Below are positions 5,280 to 58,500 of a DNA stretch of 64,000 bases, piece after piece (the first letter of the stretch is position 1; every line of letters starts with the position of its first letter). The notes beneath the pieces are model-generated. The model made no database searches and was not told the origin of the DNA. It saw only the letters and a program-made list of their open reading frames with translations. This stretch comes from Chondrosia reniformis (Eukaryota; Porifera; Demospongiae; Chondrillida; Chondrillidae): contig OX359189.1 in NCBI GenBank assembly GCA_947172415.1, forward strand, positions 8,632,501 to 8,696,500, in the 5' to 3' direction. Both the position numbers and the translations under genes were made by a program.

Positions 5280-6000
5280 CACCCATTGCATACTACATAC
5301 GTACGTTGTGCATGTGTATATTACGTATACAAAAATCTGATGGATATTATTGCTGCAATTAATGACATTAAAAGTGAAGAGCAAATGCTCAGTCTCTGAT
5401 TTTGAAATTACCTATATATATATATAAAAGTAAAACGAAAGATTATCAAGTGCTGACACTATATAATAATAACATAGAGCAGTATCATGGTCAATCTTGT
5501 TTAGGGACTTGAGTATATAAGTATATATACTATACATACAAGGGAAGTTGTCCGTACAATTATTTAATATACTATCTACAATTTTACATACGTATATATA
5601 CTGAACAAGTTTTTTGTACAACACCTTCAGTGATTGAGGGGAAACAACAGAAGTGCCCATCTACGTACATACGTATATACGTACTTGCTTATACAGTGAT
5701 TATTTTCTTGTCAGTACTTCATCGTACACTCCATCTCCCAAGCTAGGATTAGCTATTGATCTAGGTCTATCTCCTTTTGAGTGGTCCAAGTCAGCATATA
5801 TGAAGTGGGTTGTTGCTGTGACTGTAGTAGAGGAAATGATATATGAGCAACAGGATACGTACATATGTATTATAGATTAGCAAAACAAATGTGTAAGATT
5901 TGCCTGTTTTAACTTGTTCATGCTGTATACCGTAGAATACCAGCTCGTTTCCATGGCAATGGGGTATATATACAAACTGTATATAGAAGGCCATACTAAC
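5280..6000. repeat. Segment duplicated at 31080-31790
   Basis: This segment, which includes the tail exon of gene A, recurs at 31080-31790 in the same orientation with small indels. The similarity stops at AAGGCCATA near 6000, one or two bases outside the short transmembrane exon of gene A. The distant copy therefore has the tail exon but no transmembrane exon. Confidence 0.85.
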
Positions 6001-9942: not shown

Positions 9943-12900
9943 TTACTCGTCCGGTGGACCCTAAAACAGAAAAATGCATTTTAATGTGAAACCTTTGTAG
10001 TATTTCAGGTTTAAAAATACTGAAGCATCATAAACAACAACTTACAAAAAAATCTTGAGAGAAATGTAGAGCTTTCTCATCCTGTATATGAAAAAAATAT
10101 ACATAGCATATAAGCTTTATTTTAAGAGTATAAAACATACCTTAGGCGACTCTCTTGAAAAGTTTGTAACCAATCTTTTCCTCTGAATTAAAAACCAAAT
10201 AATATATATCACTTGAAAACAATGCCTTGATATACGTATATATATATATACATTAAAAATAACAAGTAATTGGAATTAAAAAAAATCGTGGGTTCAGCCT
10301 CCCACACTTAAATTACTTGCCTACTTTGTTGGCCTGTGCATTGAAGTGTCTTTAAGACATAGAGATAATTTTAACCATTTCAGAAGTTAGTCAAGGAATT
10401 TAAGATTTCAAAGTAATTGGGTTAAAGAGTTAATATGTTGGAAGACTACAAGTTAATTTAAGTATATACTACAATAAACTCATTTTGAACATAAATGATT
10501 TGGAATCATTTTTAGGCATGCAAAGAAACATTTTATGACCTAAATTAGAATGATCACAATTAAGGAAGAAGTGTGTTTTGAAAGGCATTTGCTAACCATT
10601 AGTGTGGCACAAGTATACATTCAGCCTACCAGTTGTCTATTGGGGTCTTTTTCCTCTCTAGCATTTTCGCTGGAAGGCCCAGTCTGTAAGGATGCATGGA
10701 AAAGGAGAATATCATAAACTATCAAAGTATAAATACGTAGATAAATATGTACGTAGCAATGAAGGAATACTGGTGAACACCTATTAGAGTAATGCCTTCA
10801 TTCAACTAGATTTTCATAATACAGGGTCTCACTTAAGCAACTGCTAGCAGTAACAATCTCCAACTGAATGGAGGACCAAATATATATTACAGTGCAGGCC
10901 TCTATTATAAAATATACAATGGAACTTCTTATAACAATAAGGTAGCTACCCAAATCTTAAAAAATAGCCATTAAATTAACTTACGTACCTACAATTAGCA
11001 TGGCATAATAATGTATGATATTGTTAACAAATAGGGCTATGCAAATATTTGGCATACTCAGACAATCTAGAACACCATATTCCAAAAAAATTATGGTTAT
11101 ATATCATGTACGAGAGTTGTGCATTTATTACCAAATATGACAACACAACTTACATGTACATACTGGTTGCTATGCTCTTCCTCTGGGCGTTTTGGCTTGT
11201 CCTATATATCATGTAAACCATTACTTGAACATATATATACATATATCTACCAGTGATTATGTATTTCAGTATGACATACGTATACGTATATGTCACTGTA
11301 CATATTTTAACACAACTTCAAAGCTGGTGCGAAATATATGTATCTGTAACACTTTCAAAATGCCTAAAATGCAGTACAAGACAGAATTCTTACTACAGTT
11401 CAGTTTAAACATGAAAAGCCTACATACATACGTACGTACATTCTATGTATATACGTACGTATGTGAAACTGCATGTTTATGTATATATGTAGTTTACGTA
11501 TGTACATTCAAATTCTTAGGGGCATACACATACTAATCTTGTAGTTGTGTATAAATTATACGTTTACATACATGTATGTACATATACATATTAATCAAAT
11601 TAGTTGAGCTTTAGTAACACAGTAGAGTGTCTTCATATAAAATTATTGAGTATGTACAATTTACATACTTATGTATGTCTGCTAATGTTTGTTTATCCAG
11701 ACATATATAAATACGTATATACAGAGATGGGAAAATGTACCAGTCTACTAAATGTACATTCAAAACATTGGCGAAAGCAATTTAGGCTGTATATATGCAA
11801 ATTTTGCATGACTATATATAGTAGACATTCCTAGGCTATTATTTCTTTCTACAGTAGAACCTCGGTTATCCAAACCTCAGTTAACCGGCTACTCGGATTA
11901 TCCGGACTCGAAGGTCGCATACTCTTATTAACGCCCATCGTTTGTTTGCGAAGTGATGGCTAGTTTGAGTGGCTCTGCGAGGAAAAGGAAGCGCTTAGTT
12001 CTTCCCCTAGAGAGTAAGATAGCTATACTGGAGCGACTGAAGGCTGGAGCAACCCAAGCGCAGCTTGCGGAGGAGTACGGGATTGGAAGTTCGACCGTTG
12101 GCGATATCAAAATTACATATTCATTAAGATGATTCACATATCCGGCCGTTTCACTTATCCGGCCATAGCTTGGTCCCATTGAGGCCGGATAACCGAGGTT
12201 CTACTGTATATATAAATACGTATGTCCACTGTATATACGTACGTACATATGTATATACAAAAATTATTTGACAATACAGGACTTTAACTGTCTATAGATA
12301 ACTTACACATTTTATCTGGGTATATGTGGTCTCATTTATCATGGGATTATCCACACTTTCTGGCCCTTTGGATTTATTATGATCAATATCAGCATAGACT
12401 ATTGTTGCAGCATCTCTAGGCTGAAAATGTTTATGAAAGCAAACTGAAGGACTTACTCGTGTATAAACAAATAAAAATTCTAAAATTTGCCTATAGTAAT
12501 ATATACATTTTATATGTAACTAAATTGTTCTACACTTTTAACTAACTGTCACATCTTTATTTTTGCTTGTAATAACTTCACCGGATAACTATAGGTAGAG
12601 GGAAAAGTAATAATAAATGTGTGCAGTGAATAGGCAGAAACTATAAAAAGCATATCTATCTGTTCTATACCTACATATGCTGACTTAGCAAAGTTATAGA
12701 CCTGTAAGGACTTAAAAGAGAAGACAAGAAGACAAAACCTCCCAGGGCCACTAATGAAGGATGGAATTACCATAAACAGCCCAGTGAAGAAAATGAAAAA
12801 ATGGTATAAATTGTGTCCTCACTTCTATAGGTTTTCCCTATTATGGTAAGTCTAGAGAAATAGTCTGTTTCTATTTGCATTTTCTTAATCATGTCAAGCT

Positions 12901-15139
12901 TATCTTTTGGAAAAAGGTGATATATGTTTTTCATATTTATTTAAGTGTATGCTAAACACTTTATTAAAAATGTAACAGTGTATCTTATTATACTAACTGA
13001 TTCAGAAGGTGATTTTGGAACACTTTTCCTACTCTTCTTCTTGCAGTAGATGATCATAATAATCAGCATTACAAGTATTACAATTAAGCAGCAAGGGATA
13101 ACTACTATGGGTATGATTATGGTTTCCAGTCCAATAGATTTAGGCCTCTCTATATGCAATCCTAGATAAAAATAAATTAAAGATATACATGTATATATAC
13201 ATACGGTACAGGTCAAAAGAAACTTGGCGATTTCCGCAAGGGTTTGTACGGGAATCCGCAAATTTTCTGCGTACTGCTGTACAGCCATTTGCGGTTTGCC
13301 ATATCAGCATCTGCGGGTATCGTCAGCCATGTTTGTAAACAAACGAACAATACGTATGTACGTAGGGTGTCGATAGGGAAGCCATGCAATCTATGAAGAA
13401 AATGATACGTACGTATGTTGAGCATTTCGATCTTTATCTACGTATAAGTATCGTCAGAATTAATAATACGAAAGTATGTAGACAACAATAAAATAATAGA
13501 GTATTCAAAACAGTTTGCTTTGTTGTATAGATTCTTTCAATTGCTATAATTTTTAAAATATTGGATGCTGACCCTTTATTTTGGAGATGGAGAGACACAA
13601 TTCTTTCTCTTTGATACTTAGTTAATGGCATAGTATATTACTGGAAACTCATACGTATTATTCATTATCATTATTATTCATATTATTTATGTACGTACGT
13701 AAATCGCCAATCAAAACTCTACGATAAAACACTAAGGTCCGCCGAAAGAATCTGTGAAAATCCTCGGAATTTGTATAGATTCGCAAATTAACACCTATAT
13801 TCTGAGGATTTTCACAGATTCCTTCGGCGGACCTCAGTGTTTTATTGTAGAGTTTTGATTGGCAAATTAAATAATATGAGTATCCTGTAATATCCTACAT
13901 GCATTTGGACGTTATGAATCATTGCGATTAGAAGAAGCGATTAGGAATGAGATGGCAAGCAAAATTATGGTAGAATGGATCGAAGGAAGGGCAGCTGGCA
14001 AAAGATTGTATGTAACAAGAAACAGTATCAAAGAAGGAACTGTAGCTCCTGGAAAAACTGCTAGCGTGATTTGGGGAAAGTCAAGACTACGAATTGTAAT
14101 CGTCATAATATACTATGTACGCATACGTATACGTACGTACGTATACGCAAATTTCCGCACTTGCAGCTTTCCTCAGTTGCTCTCTCAAAAACCCTCAGAC
14201 AGCTGCGTGGCCAACTGCAGACGGTGGCATTGTCCAACAGCGGAAAAATGCAAAAATCGCCAAGTTTCTTTTGACCTGTACCGTACATATACGTATATCT
14301 CATTAGTTGTACGTATATGTATTCAACCTACGTACGTAATCACAATATTTTAAATTTGATCATTTAGAGAAATTTCTATGTATAAAACAGACTAAAAGGA
14401 AGTATACATATATTAAAAACAAATTATGAAATTCAAGGAGCTGTTTAGCTATCAATGATCACTGAAACTTCTGCAATTATGATTTCTGAAAGAATAATCA
14501 TTCACAATAGAGACTGACCAGTTACTGTTTTTGGTGTATCACTCATATCAGTCCAATTGTATTTTGATGCTTCTTGCGATAGGCTAATATTGATACCACA
14601 AGTATAAGTAGCATTTCCTGTAAATCTTGAAGTGAGATGCATGGAATTTTCATTTTGAATCATGACATCATCTTTCTTCCAAAAAACCAAAATCTTATAT
14701 CTTGTCATGTCATACGCATTTGTATAATTACAAGTTAAAGTAAACATATCATTTATATATAGCTCTTCATCTTTCTGAAACTCCACAGAAATTTTACCTA
14801 CAATATGTACATATAACAATTCAAATTATGACTTCTTATGTAGATGAGAAAAAGAACACTTACTTGTTGTTGCCATTTGCATTGTTGTATTACTAAAGGA
14901 TGAACCATCAAGTACAGCCCAATATTTAATAATATAGTTGGTACTAGCACTCAGATCTCTAGCCTTTGGCATGTCATCCCTGCCAGGTGTGGGAAAAGTT
15001 CCACTATCTATCTCATTTCCTTCTGTTTTATACAGTACTGTATTTAAGGTGTAATTGCCATGTTGCCATGATTCCTCTCTTTTCCATACACATCCAAAAG
15101 AGTTAGAAAGAGGCACGAGAACTATAACAGGATCAGGTT
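9943..15139 (-). CDS. Gene B (3' part): FN3-Ig-transmembrane receptor with ITIM and ITSM-like motifs
   Basis: Seven exons join in frame with consensus splice sites: FN3 14864-15139, Ig 14519-14797 (FTLTCNYTN, VFWKKDD, ATYTCGINIS), membrane segment 12998-13161 (IIIPIVVIPCCLIVILVMLI followed by CKKKSRKS), tyrosine tail 12307-12420, then three tiny exons 10141-10182, 10046-10081 and 9943-9960 ending GPPDE and stop. The 38-residue tail exon contains TIVYADIDH, a canonical ITIM ([ILVS]xYxx[ILV]), and TTYTQI, which fits the ITSM pattern TxYxx[VI]. Their tyrosines are 24 residues apart. This suggests recruitment of tandem-SH2 phosphatases such as SHP-type enzymes (inference from vertebrate receptors). 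Introns carry a Tigger MITE and a Tc1-like element. The 5' part is probably at 24943-25536. Confidence 0.85.
10263..10319. repeat. Short inverted repeat of the CAAGTA-TT family
   Basis: The ends CAAGTAATT and AATTACTTG enclose TCGTGGGTTCAGCCTCCCAC, which resembles the better kept hairpin at 19473-19534. It is probably a small palindromic element in a gene B intron. Confidence 0.45.
11852..12206. mobile_element. Tigger/pogo-type MITE (355 bp)
   Basis: Perfect ends CAGTAGAACCTCGGTTATCC and its inverse, flanked by a TA target duplication, as in pogo/Tigger elements of the Tc1/mariner superfamily. It keeps the first part of a transposase but not the catalytic domain, so it is a deletion derivative. 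It sits in the intron of gene B between the ITIM exon and the small exons. Confidence 0.9.
11956..12132 (+). pseudogene. Tigger transposase N-terminal fragment (CENP-B-type helix-turn-helix)
   Basis: A 58-residue frame starting MASLSGSARKRKR. It continues with ESKIAILERLKAG, AQLAEEYGIGSSTVGDIK, the N-terminal DNA-binding helix-turn-helix of pogo/CENP-B proteins. It ends at a stop after the first HTH. The second HTH and the DDE nuclease are missing, so it is not functional as a transposase. Confidence 0.85.
13434..13631 (-). pseudogene. Tc1-like transposase HTH fragment
   Basis: The frame starts MPLTKYQRERIVSLHLQNKG and continues with a helix containing TTKQTVLNTL, resembling the first helix-turn-helix of Tc1-family transposases. 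No DDE domain follows. Confidence 0.55.
13695..13866. repeat. Nested hairpin inside the Tc1-like element
   Basis: Arms of about 65-70 bp (left begins AATCGCCAATCAAAACTCTA, right ends GTAGAGTTTTGATTGGCAAA) around a loop of about 30 bases. It looks like a foldback MITE inserted in the larger element. Confidence 0.8.
13922..14106 (+). pseudogene. Unrecognised coding fragment in the Tc1-like element
   Basis: Open frame with MRLEEAIRNEMASK, VEWIEGRAAGKRLYVTR and GKTASVIWGKSR. Composition is protein-like and charge-rich, but I cannot name the family. The VxWGKSR region loosely recalls VKVKFGNKIYSAK in the GC-rich element at 8.8 kb. It has no start or stop context of its own and is likely a remnant. 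Confidence 0.35.
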
Positions 15140-31467: not shown

Positions 31468-31584
31468 TTATTTTCTTGTCAGTACTTCATCGTACACTCC
31501 ATCTCCCAAGCTAGGATTAGCTACTGCTCTAGGTCTATCTCCTTTTGAGTGGTCCAAGTCAGCATAATAGGAAGTGGGTTGCTG
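31468..31584 (-). pseudogene. Stray copy of the gene A tyrosine tail exon
   Basis: Matches the tail exon at 5700-5815 and would read SYYADLDH and VYDEVL, but it is 117 nt instead of 116. In the phase that fits gene A a stop appears at once. No transmembrane exon is next to it because the duplication ends before it. It could only be used from a phase-0 donor. Probably a duplication fragment. Confidence 0.65.
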
Positions 31585-32092
31585 CTGCGACTATAGTAGA
31601 GGAAATGATATATGAGCAACAGGATATGTATATAGAGTAGCAAAACAAATGTGTAAGATTTGCTTTACTTCCTGTTTTAACTTGTTCATGCTGTATACCA
31701 TAGAATACCCATATTATCAGCTTGTTGCCATGGCAATGGGGTATAAATAGATATATATACAAACTATATACGTAGAAGGCCATATTTCAAAGAATATGCA
31801 TGTCTAAATGAAGTTAAGGAAGCATAAAAGAGGATAGACTTACATTTTCTTAGATTAAACTTAGAAGTAAAAGTTATAATATATACCGAGGTGGCATACC
31901 TCATTACTCTTACTGACTTTGTTTTACTTGAATACCATGTACTTACAATTATAAACTTAACATTCCCAACAAAGTCACAATATCTAGTTGACATTAAATC
32001 ACACAGGTTAAGTGTTAATGTGTAAGGAGTATATGGTTAAAATATATAAGTACATATTACAATGTCCTGTTAAAATTCATCCATAATCTTAC

Positions 32093-55516: not shown

Positions 55517-58500
55517 TCAAGCTTGGCGAGTGGTAGCATATTCAACTTTATACATTTCATTATCACTATGCACTGGCTCACGTCCAGTGAAAGTCAAATC
55601 TGCATAATTTAACTTATCAGTAGCCAGCTAGAAAATGGAAATACAGATAATACTTGTATACATGCATTGAGCAAAATTCAACTTGAGTAATTACAAATAA
55701 CTCTATGTAATTATAAAACCCATTACCATACTAAGTAGTGTAAATATTCAAGTGTTAAATTATAATATGTACAATTGTATTCAAATATAGTTAAAACAAT
55801 GCTCAATATCCAGCAAGAATTGCAAAACAGGGTATTATTAGACATTACTACTGCTAATAGCTATATATAGTCAATACTTACAGCTTTGTCCACAAGCTTT
55901 GGGTTATTGATTTCCATCTGATAGGAAATAAAGTAAAATGCAATATCACAATAGACACAATTGCATGGACAAAACCATGTATATACGTATGTACATGTAT
56001 GTATATACCTAATAATTTGTCCTCACTATGTATAAGGTATACATTAAGGGGGGTCAATATGCTTACATCCTTTGTTTCACTGTCACTTTCTGGTTGACAC
56101 TTTTGGTTCTTCTGATAGCACTTCTTATAGTATACAATTATTATAAGAACTGTAGTTACAATCACTATGAGCACAACAACAGCTATTCCAATAATGAGAC
56201 CTATGTTGGCACTCTCGGATGGGATAACTGAATGTACAGTAAGTAAAGAGATTACAAACATAATTAATATGTATAGAATAAAGCATATATACGTACTTAT
56301 TACTGATACTATATAATATGCTTAAAGTACACATTCATGAATTATCTAAAACATACTATTTTAATAACACCATATTCCAAAATCAATAACTATGTATATA
56401 TATATAAAGCTAAGTAAAAGCATGTACTAACCCGTAACTGGATATTGAATTTCTATCTAATCAAAGCAAAACAATCTATTAGCAAACAAATATACAGTTC
56501 AAAAGCTGTGAATTTACTTTTAGGTCTTACAGAAACTGCAACAGTATTACTTTCTTCAATTATTCCATTCCTTAATTCCATGGCACACTTAATCTCAACT
56601 GTACCTTCACCATTAACAGATACTACCTCAGAATTGTCATTAGTCTGGATAGGACTTTCGTTGAATGAATCATCATCATGAATCCATAGTGTATTTGATT
56701 TAAAAAAAATTGGTTTGTTTTGTTCATCCTTTCCATTTCTGTTATGATGTTGACACATTAGTTTTACATTTTCAGGTGTAGAGTCCATAACTTCTAAAGT
56801 TATATTGGCTATAAGGAAAGAATGATATTATATGTACATATCTTAATATTCAAAAGATCCACTTTGGCCAAGCTTCACTTACATAAAGTAGTAAATTGCA
56901 TCTCTTTAGGACTACTTTTCATAGCCTCACCATCAACAGCAGATATAGAGATGTTGTATGTAGTCTGGGGACTCAGTCCAGTAAAATTCACAGACGGTCC
57001 AGAAACATTGTGCATCTGCACTACTGATCCATTGTTTTTAATAACACATTCATAGCCAGTAATGTTGAAACAAGTTTCATTACTTTTTGCCCAATTACAG
57101 TAGATAGCATTACTACCTTTCACATCTTCAGTCACAGGACCAGTAGGCAATTCTAACAAATGAAAACCCTTACGTATGTACACATTTCAGATTTTGTAAA
57201 CACGCATATAAAGTGTTTGTGTATACAAATACAGTACTCCACATTAAGAGAGGGCGCTTTATTTTATAGAGAAAAAGGGCTCATTAAGCCACAGGGAATT
57301 TCAATTTACTACTCTTTGGCATGGAATAATGAAAGTAAATAACCAAAAAATAATGAGTGGCAATCAATCCAGAATACTTTTAGAATGATCTGCTTGCATC
57401 ATGTCATTCCACTATTCAATCATTATTCCAATAATTTAAACACATGTAGATACATAATCATGTACTGAATTATAGTTCTAATCAGCCTTCCTGGAATAAA
57501 ATCCACTATTTTGGTGCATGCAACATTGGGCATGTAAAACTCAGGTGACACTCAGCAACACTTCAAGATAAGCTCATATGCAGTTAAAGTGAAAATTGGA
57601 AATGGTTTTATCAAATTTGCAATCACAGATGCTGGATGCTTATATACTGAGGCAAGATGTGGCATATACAGTTTCTGCACGCGCTACACCCTAATTTCTA
57701 ACCCAGATAATGGTCGTGGGCAGGACATACGTAGATTAAGCAGTACCACTATAATTGGCATGTGACAAGAATTTTTTTAATATTCACACAAATCACTCTA
57801 CAGAAATCTTCCATTATAAAACTTTGAGAGGTGGCATGGATTGAGGCTATTCATTGACTCTTATCCTAAAACTATTAATTTATCAAATCTAGCAATTGCT
57901 GTTATACAATTACATATATGCACATACAATGTACATACATATACTGATCCACGAATCCTTTCAGCTGTGCCCGTGAAACATCTTTACATAAACCCTTATA
58001 GGGTGCCTTATTCATTCCTAGTCCTCTTTCATTTGGTAGAATTATATCCCCCAGCTCAATCTCTCATGACTGTGATTGCAAACTCTGAAGGTTCATTCAT
58101 ATCACATTGATTTTACATACATAATACATAACATAAATACTGTAACTATAAGGAACCTCTAAGTAAAACAAGGCATGGATAACTTATATCAAGGTACATC
58201 AAATAGAGTTTAGAATATCTTTCTTAAAATGGCTGTATTGTCAAAGAGAACTATGTAAATGGCACAATGAAATAATGTCTCTTCGGATGATAGCTGTTGT
58301 CAGTAAACTTGCCAAGCTCAGTAATTCAAGGCTTTTCTTGTTTTAGAAAAGATAATTACTTATAGATATTACCAGAAAAGGTTTGTCTGCCAGAAGAGCA
58401 CATCACATATACGTAGGTGTAACCCATATAGCAATAATATATACAGTAGGCGTCAAAATAAACTTCCCATACCGTTGCCGTACAACGTTGGTTCTACGTA

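What the first reader, a model, noticed from the sequence alone, without database searches (positions are those of the whole stretch)
12307..12420. ITIM plus ITSM-like motif in one tail exon of an early-branching animal receptor
Seen: the exon reads TIVYADIDH and, 24 residues after that tyrosine, TTYTQI. These match the ITIM and ITSM patterns. Known: in vertebrate PD-1 the ITIM and ITSM tyrosines are 25 residues apart and bind tandem-SH2 phosphatases. Inference: the logic of Ig-type inhibitory receptors may exist in this lineage, with an Ig/FN3 ectodomain, a membrane helix and an ITIM/ITSM pair. This would be the most interesting system in the window.
Basis: partly seen in the sequence, partly recalled or inferred. 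Interest (0 to 1): 0.85.

Follow-up and report, generated by a model that had tools for sequence, protein, structure and literature searches.

The report
Sponge receptor tail with paired tyrosines
A sponge cell-surface receptor gene carries, in its inner tail, two tyrosine signalling motifs 24 residues apart that look like the off-switch of vertebrate immune receptors; the paired tyrosines recur in a sponge receptor family, but the off-switch reading is unproven.

Summary
Window 12420-12307 (minus) is an open phase-0 exon with canonical splice sites. It encodes IVYADI (ITIM) and TTYTQI (ITSM), tyrosines 24 apart, within a nine-exon frame-consistent chain: FN3-like exon, Ig-like exon, membrane helix, six tail exons. 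The genome fits the demosponge Chondrosia reniformis. The exon belongs to a tandem-tyrosine module: in 17 open copies on two chromosomes both tyrosines are YxxPhi sites, 24 residues apart in 14 and 23 in three. Between the window exon and six of seven paralogues, YADxDH and the second tyrosine change mostly silently. Against the strong reading: the -2 residue that makes an ITIM or ITSM is not conserved. ITIM fits site 1 in 9 of 17 copies; ITSM fits site 2 only in the window gene, about what composition gives. The Ig assignments are below Pfam cut-offs. Best reading: a phosphotyrosine docking tail, perhaps SHP2-recruiting. Inhibition and immune function are inference; no expression evidence was available.

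The parts
14864..15139 (-). Ectodomain exon D1, FN3-like, phase 1-1
   Evidence: Splice sites; AF2 pLDDT 68.6; Foldseek's 50 listed hits are mostly FN3-type, best 5n48 fibronectin ED-B TM 0.74, E 1.3e-3, none at E 0.001 or better; no fn3 hit in Pfam
14519..14797 (-). Ectodomain exon D2, Ig-like (Cys..Trp..Cys), phase 1-1
   Evidence: Pfam ig 13.9 bits, below cut-off 21.8; AF2 pLDDT 75.3, beta strands only; Foldseek best E 8.5e-3, mixed beta-sandwich folds
12998..13161 (-). Transmembrane helix and KKK exon, phase 1-0
   Evidence: (mean hydropathy 2.79 over 19 residues)
12307..12420 (-). Tail exon with tandem-tyrosine module: ITIM IVYADI and ITSM TTYTQI, Tyr-Tyr 24
11154..11201 (-). Tail exon 2, DKPKRPEEEHSNQYVH
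   Evidence: Phase-0 exon, AG/GT; by sequence only
10630..10683 (-). Tail exon 3
   Evidence: Phase-0 exon, AG/GT; by sequence only
10141..10182 (-). Tail exon 4
   Evidence: Phase-0 exon, AG/GT; by sequence only
10046..10081 (-). Tail exon 5
   Evidence: Phase-0 exon, AG/GT; by sequence only
9943..9960 (-). Tail exon 6, GPPDE and stop TAA
   Evidence: Phase-0 exon, acceptor AG; by sequence only
31483..31587 (-). Paralogous module, SYYADL..24..GVYDEV, open
5715..5821 (-). Paralogous module, out of frame in phase 0 (broken copy)
   Evidence: early stop in phase 0 after the acceptor; homologous peptide readable only in another frame
55520..55627 (-). Different ITIM-like tail exon, LNYADL..MYKVEYATTRQA, of a neighbouring receptor gene

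Best explanation
The exon encodes a phosphotyrosine docking module in the tail of a type I FN3-Ig receptor of a demosponge. When the ectodomain meets its ligand, an SH2-kinase of the Src kind would phosphorylate the two YxxPhi sites. Their near-fixed spacing of 24 residues lets one tandem-SH2 protein bind both, most likely one of the two SHP2-type phosphatases encoded in the genome, which is thereby opened and acts near the membrane. Shown: exon, frame, motifs, spacing, conservation within the genome, presence of SHP2-type and SH2-kinase genes. Inferred: phosphorylation, SHP2 binding, and the sign of the signal (inhibition).
For: Both sites are YxxPhi in 17 of 17 open modules. Spacing 24 in 14 of them (which also lists a 15th, excluded copy), 23 in C1:8726763 and 8784138 and C1:8419565 (read). 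Invariant columns of a 12-row alignment: Y9, P20, N25, Y33. Against six of seven paralogues compared, the window exon keeps the residue in 6 of 7 codons (YADxDH plus second Y), four of these by silent changes (three in one copy); between the motifs 5 of 18 codons keep it in three copies and 4 of 18 in one; the copies with other spacing were not counted there (Fisher p 0.021, one comparison of related copies). Exons upstream of modules: Ig-FN3-Ig-FN3-TM like at C4:2560k, FN3-Ig-FN3-TM like at C1:8432k, labels by likeness to the window's exons. A second tail type has LNYADL and LHYADL. SHP2-type copy A: SH2 163 bits over two stretches, PTP 274 bits; PTPN11 608 bits ahead of PTPN6 552. Copy B lies alongside. 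SH2 and kinase in one ORF at C9:6665-6700 kb. ITAM readers need tyrosines about 10-12 apart, SHP-type readers over 20 (recalled).
Against: The -2 residue, important for SHP SH2 domains (recalled), is not conserved: I, S, V, M, C, G at site 1 and G at site 2 of the 16 other open copies; ITIM at site 1 in 9 of 17 (4 of 10 distinct pairs), ITSM at site 2 in 1 of 17, ITIM at site 2 in 0 of 17. Given the module, at least one T at -2 among 8 lineages has P 0.33 and at least three S/I/V/L P 0.18 (with residue frequencies from 445 tail residues that include the modules). In the paralogue C1:8703457 the DH after the first motif is VL. Sites such as YAEI and YDEV resemble Src-SH2 ligands as much as SHP ligands (recalled). 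No transcript, phosphorylation or binding data. No other sponge genome could be searched.
Confidence: 0.45

Rival explanations
1. A general tandem phosphotyrosine scaffold: each site binds a different single-SH2 protein (Src-type kinase, Grb2, PLC-gamma or PI3K class), so the receptor activates or adheres rather than inhibits.
For: The conserved core is YxxPhi, often with acidic residues (YDEV, YAEI, YADL, YVEV), not the -2 residue; 102 SH2 matches, exon pieces included, in the genome.
Against: Near-fixed spacing over diverged copies is not needed for independent sites.
Confidence: 0.35
2. YxxPhi sorting signals for AP-2 endocytosis or lysosomal targeting, not phosphotyrosine signalling.
For: Both sites of the 17 open modules have I, L or V at +3.
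Against: Conservation extends to a spaced pair with P and N invariant and D, H, R, G nearly so, more than sorting signals need (recalled); SH2 machinery is present.
Confidence: 0.12
3. The window gene is an unexpressed relic of the array and its ITSM is a neutral change.
For: Its D1-D2-TM has no close paralogue (next best E 0.12); no convincing signal-peptide exon; broken module copies exist.
Against: Nine exons open and frame-consistent with canonical splice sites; silent changes concentrate in the motifs.
Confidence: 0.08

Closest known systems
Hydractinia Alr candidate allorecognition receptors (cnidarian) with ITIM/ITAM motifs
   Same: IgSF-type receptors of an invertebrate with tyrosine motifs in the tail (passages of the review PMC12065747; the primary paper was not held)
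   Different: The sponge genes mix Ig-like with FN3 exons and share a tandem-Tyr module of near-fixed spacing; no allorecognition evidence; Alr sequences were not compared
Botryllus fester co-receptors (FcoR)
   Same: Type I receptors with ITIM, hemITAM or core YxxPhi tails encoded in one locus
   Different: FcoR have Ig and sushi domains; sponge genes Ig-like and FN3
PD-1 (PDCD1) and other ITIM/ITSM receptors of vertebrates
   Same: ITIM then ITSM, 24 against 25 residues (PD-1 value from the finding and recalled)
   Different: PD-1 has a single IgV domain (recalled); here two domain exons; ITSM shared by none of the 16 other open modules
SHP2 / PTPN11
   Same: Two adjacent sponge genes with SH2-SH2-PTP order, GIGRTG and FLVR-type segments
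   Different: Binding to the receptor untested; copy B was read but not assembled

Membership tests
ITIM-bearing receptor | [SIVL]xYxx[IVL] in the tail after a membrane helix | tested here: met
   IVYADI in the exon after the TM exon; exon chain by sequence only
ITIM-bearing receptor | The full motif, -2 residue included, kept in relatives | tested here: not met
   ITIM at site 1 in 9 of 17 open modules, 4 of 10 distinct pairs; YxxPhi in 17 of 17
ITIM-bearing receptor | Phosphorylated, binds SHP-1/SHP-2/SHIP, inhibits | not testable with these tools
   SHP2-type genes exist; SHIP was not searched for
ITSM-bearing receptor | TxYxx[VI] | tested here: met
   TTYTQI; in none of the 16 other open modules
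PD-1 / CD28 family | Single IgV ectodomain and sequence relation | tested here: not met
   Two domain exons before the helix; no PDB sequence match better than E 0.029, CD22
ITAM-bearing receptor | Two Yxx[LI] with 6-12 residues between them (recalled) | tested here: not met
   Tyrosines 24 apart in the window gene and 13 other open modules, 23 in three
IgSF/FN3 receptor | Recognisable Ig and FN3 domains | tested here: inconclusive
   of three neighbouring FN3 exons two pass the fn3 cut-off of 25 bits (32.2, 49.9), one does not (23.8); none of the four neighbouring Ig-like exons passes an Ig cut-off (best ig 14.9 of 21.8, Ig_2 20.7 of 27); window gene ig 13.9, no fn3. Fold evidence moderate

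The most novel reading that the evidence does not exclude
A large demosponge Ig/FN3 receptor family, with fast-changing distal Ig-like domains and a shared tandem-phosphotyrosine module of 24-residue spacing read by SHP2, is a sponge self/non-self or microbe-sensing system with inhibitory signalling of the ITIM kind, older than the split of sponges from cnidarians and bilaterians, or its independent invention.
Probability: 0.25. Interest if true: 0.88.

Novelty: new variant of a known kind. Interest (0 to 1): 0.55.

Why it matters
Sponge self-recognition receptors are not known with certainty (recalled). ITIM/ITAM-type tails on allorecognition receptors are described from cnidarians to mammals (passages of PMC12065747). 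A sponge Ig/FN3 array with a conserved tandem-Tyr tail plus SHP2-type phosphatases would carry this logic to an earlier branch, and it gives a defined peptide and two defined enzymes to test. Among the listed titles and abstract starts of seven searches I saw no sponge ITIM receptor: 25 of 2,423 papers listed; 12 of 21; 9 of 9; 4 of 4; 12 of 133; 4 of 4; 6 of 6. The library lacks most subscription papers, so this is no proof of absence.

Tried and rejected
PD-1 homology: rejected, no sequence relation found. ITAM reading: rejected by spacing. PF15330 SIT (SHP2-interacting adaptor) 12.6 bits, E 0.2: taken as chance; TMEM154 27.1 bits, under its cut-off 30.3: not followed, probably helix composition. 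Signal-peptide scan: two weak candidates. Pfam with four tail peptides: no hit; PDB with the module profile: three matches, best E 0.96. In one search segment C1 of SHP copy A is shifted by one residue, so its 12 of 41 was not used. Foldseek matches of D2 do not separate Ig from FN3-like folds. Of the 20 module matches, three were left out of the count of 17: window 5821-5715 (frame broken), C1:7665511 (stop) and C4:2693538 (other sequence after the second Tyr). Upstream exons QQPTSYFAEINEEE with F or L in the Tyr position at 8784829, 8767258 and 8727446 were not counted either. In one search the script failed to find the second Tyr of C1:8703457; its spacing of 24 comes. Splice sites of the diverged copies were not checked one by one. 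SHIP and Syk were not resolved.

Full report
1. Where it is. The window is C1:8632501-8696500 of a 117,379,552-base genome in 15 contigs. The size (117.37 Mb in 14 chromosomes and a mitochondrial genome) and the lengths of chromosomes 1 (10.41 Mb; C1 is 10,409,357), 3 (9.42 Mb; C3 is 9,415,654) and 4 (8.96 Mb printed; C4 is 8,954,400) fit the kidney sponge Chondrosia reniformis (abstract and passages of PMC12181767).

2. The observation. Exon 12420-12307 (-) encodes PRDAATIVYADIDHNKSKGPESVDNPMINETTYTQIKC. IVYADI fits the ITIM pattern, TTYTQI the ITSM pattern, tyrosines 24 apart. The nine exons from 15139 to 9943 have AG/GT borders and compatible phases: 1-1, 1-1, 1-0, then 0 (boundaries set by eye). 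Shuffling gives the ordered pair in 0.01% of 200,000 trials; of 3341 open phase-0 AG..GT stretches of 30-50 aa in 214 kb, both strands, only this one has it.

3. The receptor. D1 has no fn3 hit in Pfam; its model (7-row alignment, pLDDT 68.6) finds mostly FN3-type domains, best TM 0.74, E 1.3e-3. D2 has the Cys-Trp-Cys pattern, an ig score of 13.9 bits under the cut-off of 21.8 and a beta-strand model (pLDDT 75.3) with weak, mixed matches. Neither model has a match at E 0.001 or better. A 54-residue exon carries helix and KKK. The start of the gene was not found. The three exons have no close paralogue: next best match E 0.12. The neighbouring genes are better marked for FN3 (two of three exons over the cut-off) but not for Ig (none of four over a cut-off), so 'Ig-like' rests on the Cys-Trp-Cys pattern and weak scores throughout.

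4. The family. Six paralogous tail exons were found first, on C1 within 150 kb: SYYADL..GVYDEV or GVYNEV in five; the sixth, at window 5821-5715, is out of frame. A search with that form gave 20 matches on C1 and C4, the window exon among them; a further query gave 18, all among those 20. Reading them shows adjacent pairs of diverged modules such as CNYVEVDHSKGAKPRHIPNKIYGDGNYDEV and GQYVTVDHSKGENPRHQPNPNLGDGKYAEI. In a 12-row alignment the invariant columns are the two tyrosines, one P and one N. Of 17 open modules 14 have spacing 24 and three 23 (L060 read). Upstream of C4:2560k the exons read Ig-FN3-Ig-FN3-TM like; upstream of C1:8432k FN3-Ig-FN3-TM like; the labels are by likeness, not by a family search. 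The second Ig-like exon of these genes has 92 matches genome-wide, fragments included, with 150 of 159 candidates scored, so the module is on a minority of the family.

5. Selection. Between the window exon and six of seven paralogues, YADxDH plus the second Y keep the residue in 6 of 7 codons, four by silent changes (three in one copy); in the seventh, C1:8703457, DH is VL. Between the motifs 5 of 18 codons keep the residue in three copies and 4 of 18 in a fourth; Fisher p 0.021 for 6 of 7 against 5 of 18, one comparison of related copies. In the 214-kb cluster mean dN over mean dS is 1.12 for the distal Ig-like exon (15 copies, 105 pairs, 67 with dN above dS), 0.65 for the second Ig-like exon (13 copies, 78 pairs, 9 above) and 0.42 for FN3 (13 copies of a mixed set, 64 usable pairs, 7 above). 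Copies were picked by similarity thresholds and gene conversion was not excluded: a hint of diversifying or relaxed evolution, not a test.

6. Result against the strong reading. Over 17 open modules YxxPhi holds at both sites in 17, ITIM at site 1 in 9 (4 of 10 distinct pairs), ITIM at site 2 in 0, ITSM at site 2 in 1, the window gene. With tail frequencies T 0.049 and S/I/V/L 0.191 (445 residues, modules included), at least one T at -2 among eight lineages has P 0.33 and at least three S/I/V/L P 0.18. The pair of tyrosine sites is conserved; the ITIM/ITSM signature is not.

7. The machinery. Two adjacent SH2-SH2-PTP genes lie at C3:9105-9117 kb. Copy A with approximate junctions: SH2 163 bits, Y_phosphatase 274 bits; PTPN11 608 bits, PTPN6 552 bits. 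Copy B shows FLVR-type and GIGRTG segments; its exons were read, not assembled. ORFs with SH2 and tyrosine kinase lie at C9:6665-6700 kb.

8. Conclusion. What it works like: a tandem phosphotyrosine docking tail, of which SHP2 recruitment is the likeliest reading for this gene; about 0.9 that the module is a real conserved unit, 0.7 that it binds SH2 proteins, 0.4 that an SHP2-type phosphatase is the main partner. What it is: not a PD-1 relative; an ITIM/ITSM receptor by pattern, not by constraint. Known comparison: Hydractinia and Botryllus receptors with ITIM and ITAM or hemITAM motifs (passages of PMC12065747; the primary Hydractinia paper was not held). Recruitment of SH2 phosphatases by ITIM and ITSM: one passage of PMC6823243. 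On sponges, passages of PMC11999971 tie IgSF to adhesion; passages of PMC8242945 describe TIR receptors with Ig domains and many other receptors; the term ITIM does not occur in PMC8242945 or PMC12723187, nor the terms immunoglobulin and tyrosine in PMC5450542. The seven listings named under Why it matters showed no sponge ITIM receptor, four of them complete and three capped.

Noticed in passing
window and C1:8.36-9.45 Mb, also C3, C4, C5, C10, C11, C14: Expanded family: 92 matches, fragments included, to one Ig-like exon; distal Ig-like exon has dN/dS near 1.1 against 0.65 for the second.
   Followed up: partly
window 55627-55520; C1:8706841-8706737; C1:8817k, 8830k: A different tail type with ITIM-like LNYADL or LHYADL and a second cluster MYKVEYATT; two further weak matches carry a TAG.
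   Followed up: partly
C1:8784829, 8767258, 8727446: Extra upstream tail stretches resembling the module start but with Phe or Leu in place of the tyrosine, QQPTSYFAEINEEE type.
   Followed up: no
window 13189-14298: About 1.1-kb element with 50-nt terminal inverted repeats, 86% complementary, and an inner 71-nt inverted repeat, in the intron between D2 and TM exons.
   Followed up: no
window 11840-12218: Short element with 32-nt inverted ends CAGTAGAACCTCGGTTATCC, of the kind known from Tigger/pogo MITEs (family name recalled), in the intron after the motif exon.
   Followed up: no
G000 C9:1355380-1356363 and C9:1359696-1360658: Two ORFs each with three SH2 matches in about 1 kb, unusual multi-SH2 proteins.
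   Followed up: no
C1:8806129 and 8813334: Array members with a different short stretch after the helix, YRRNHKIPPQRSKG type, without a tyrosine motif in the part read: possible short-tailed partners.
   Followed up: no
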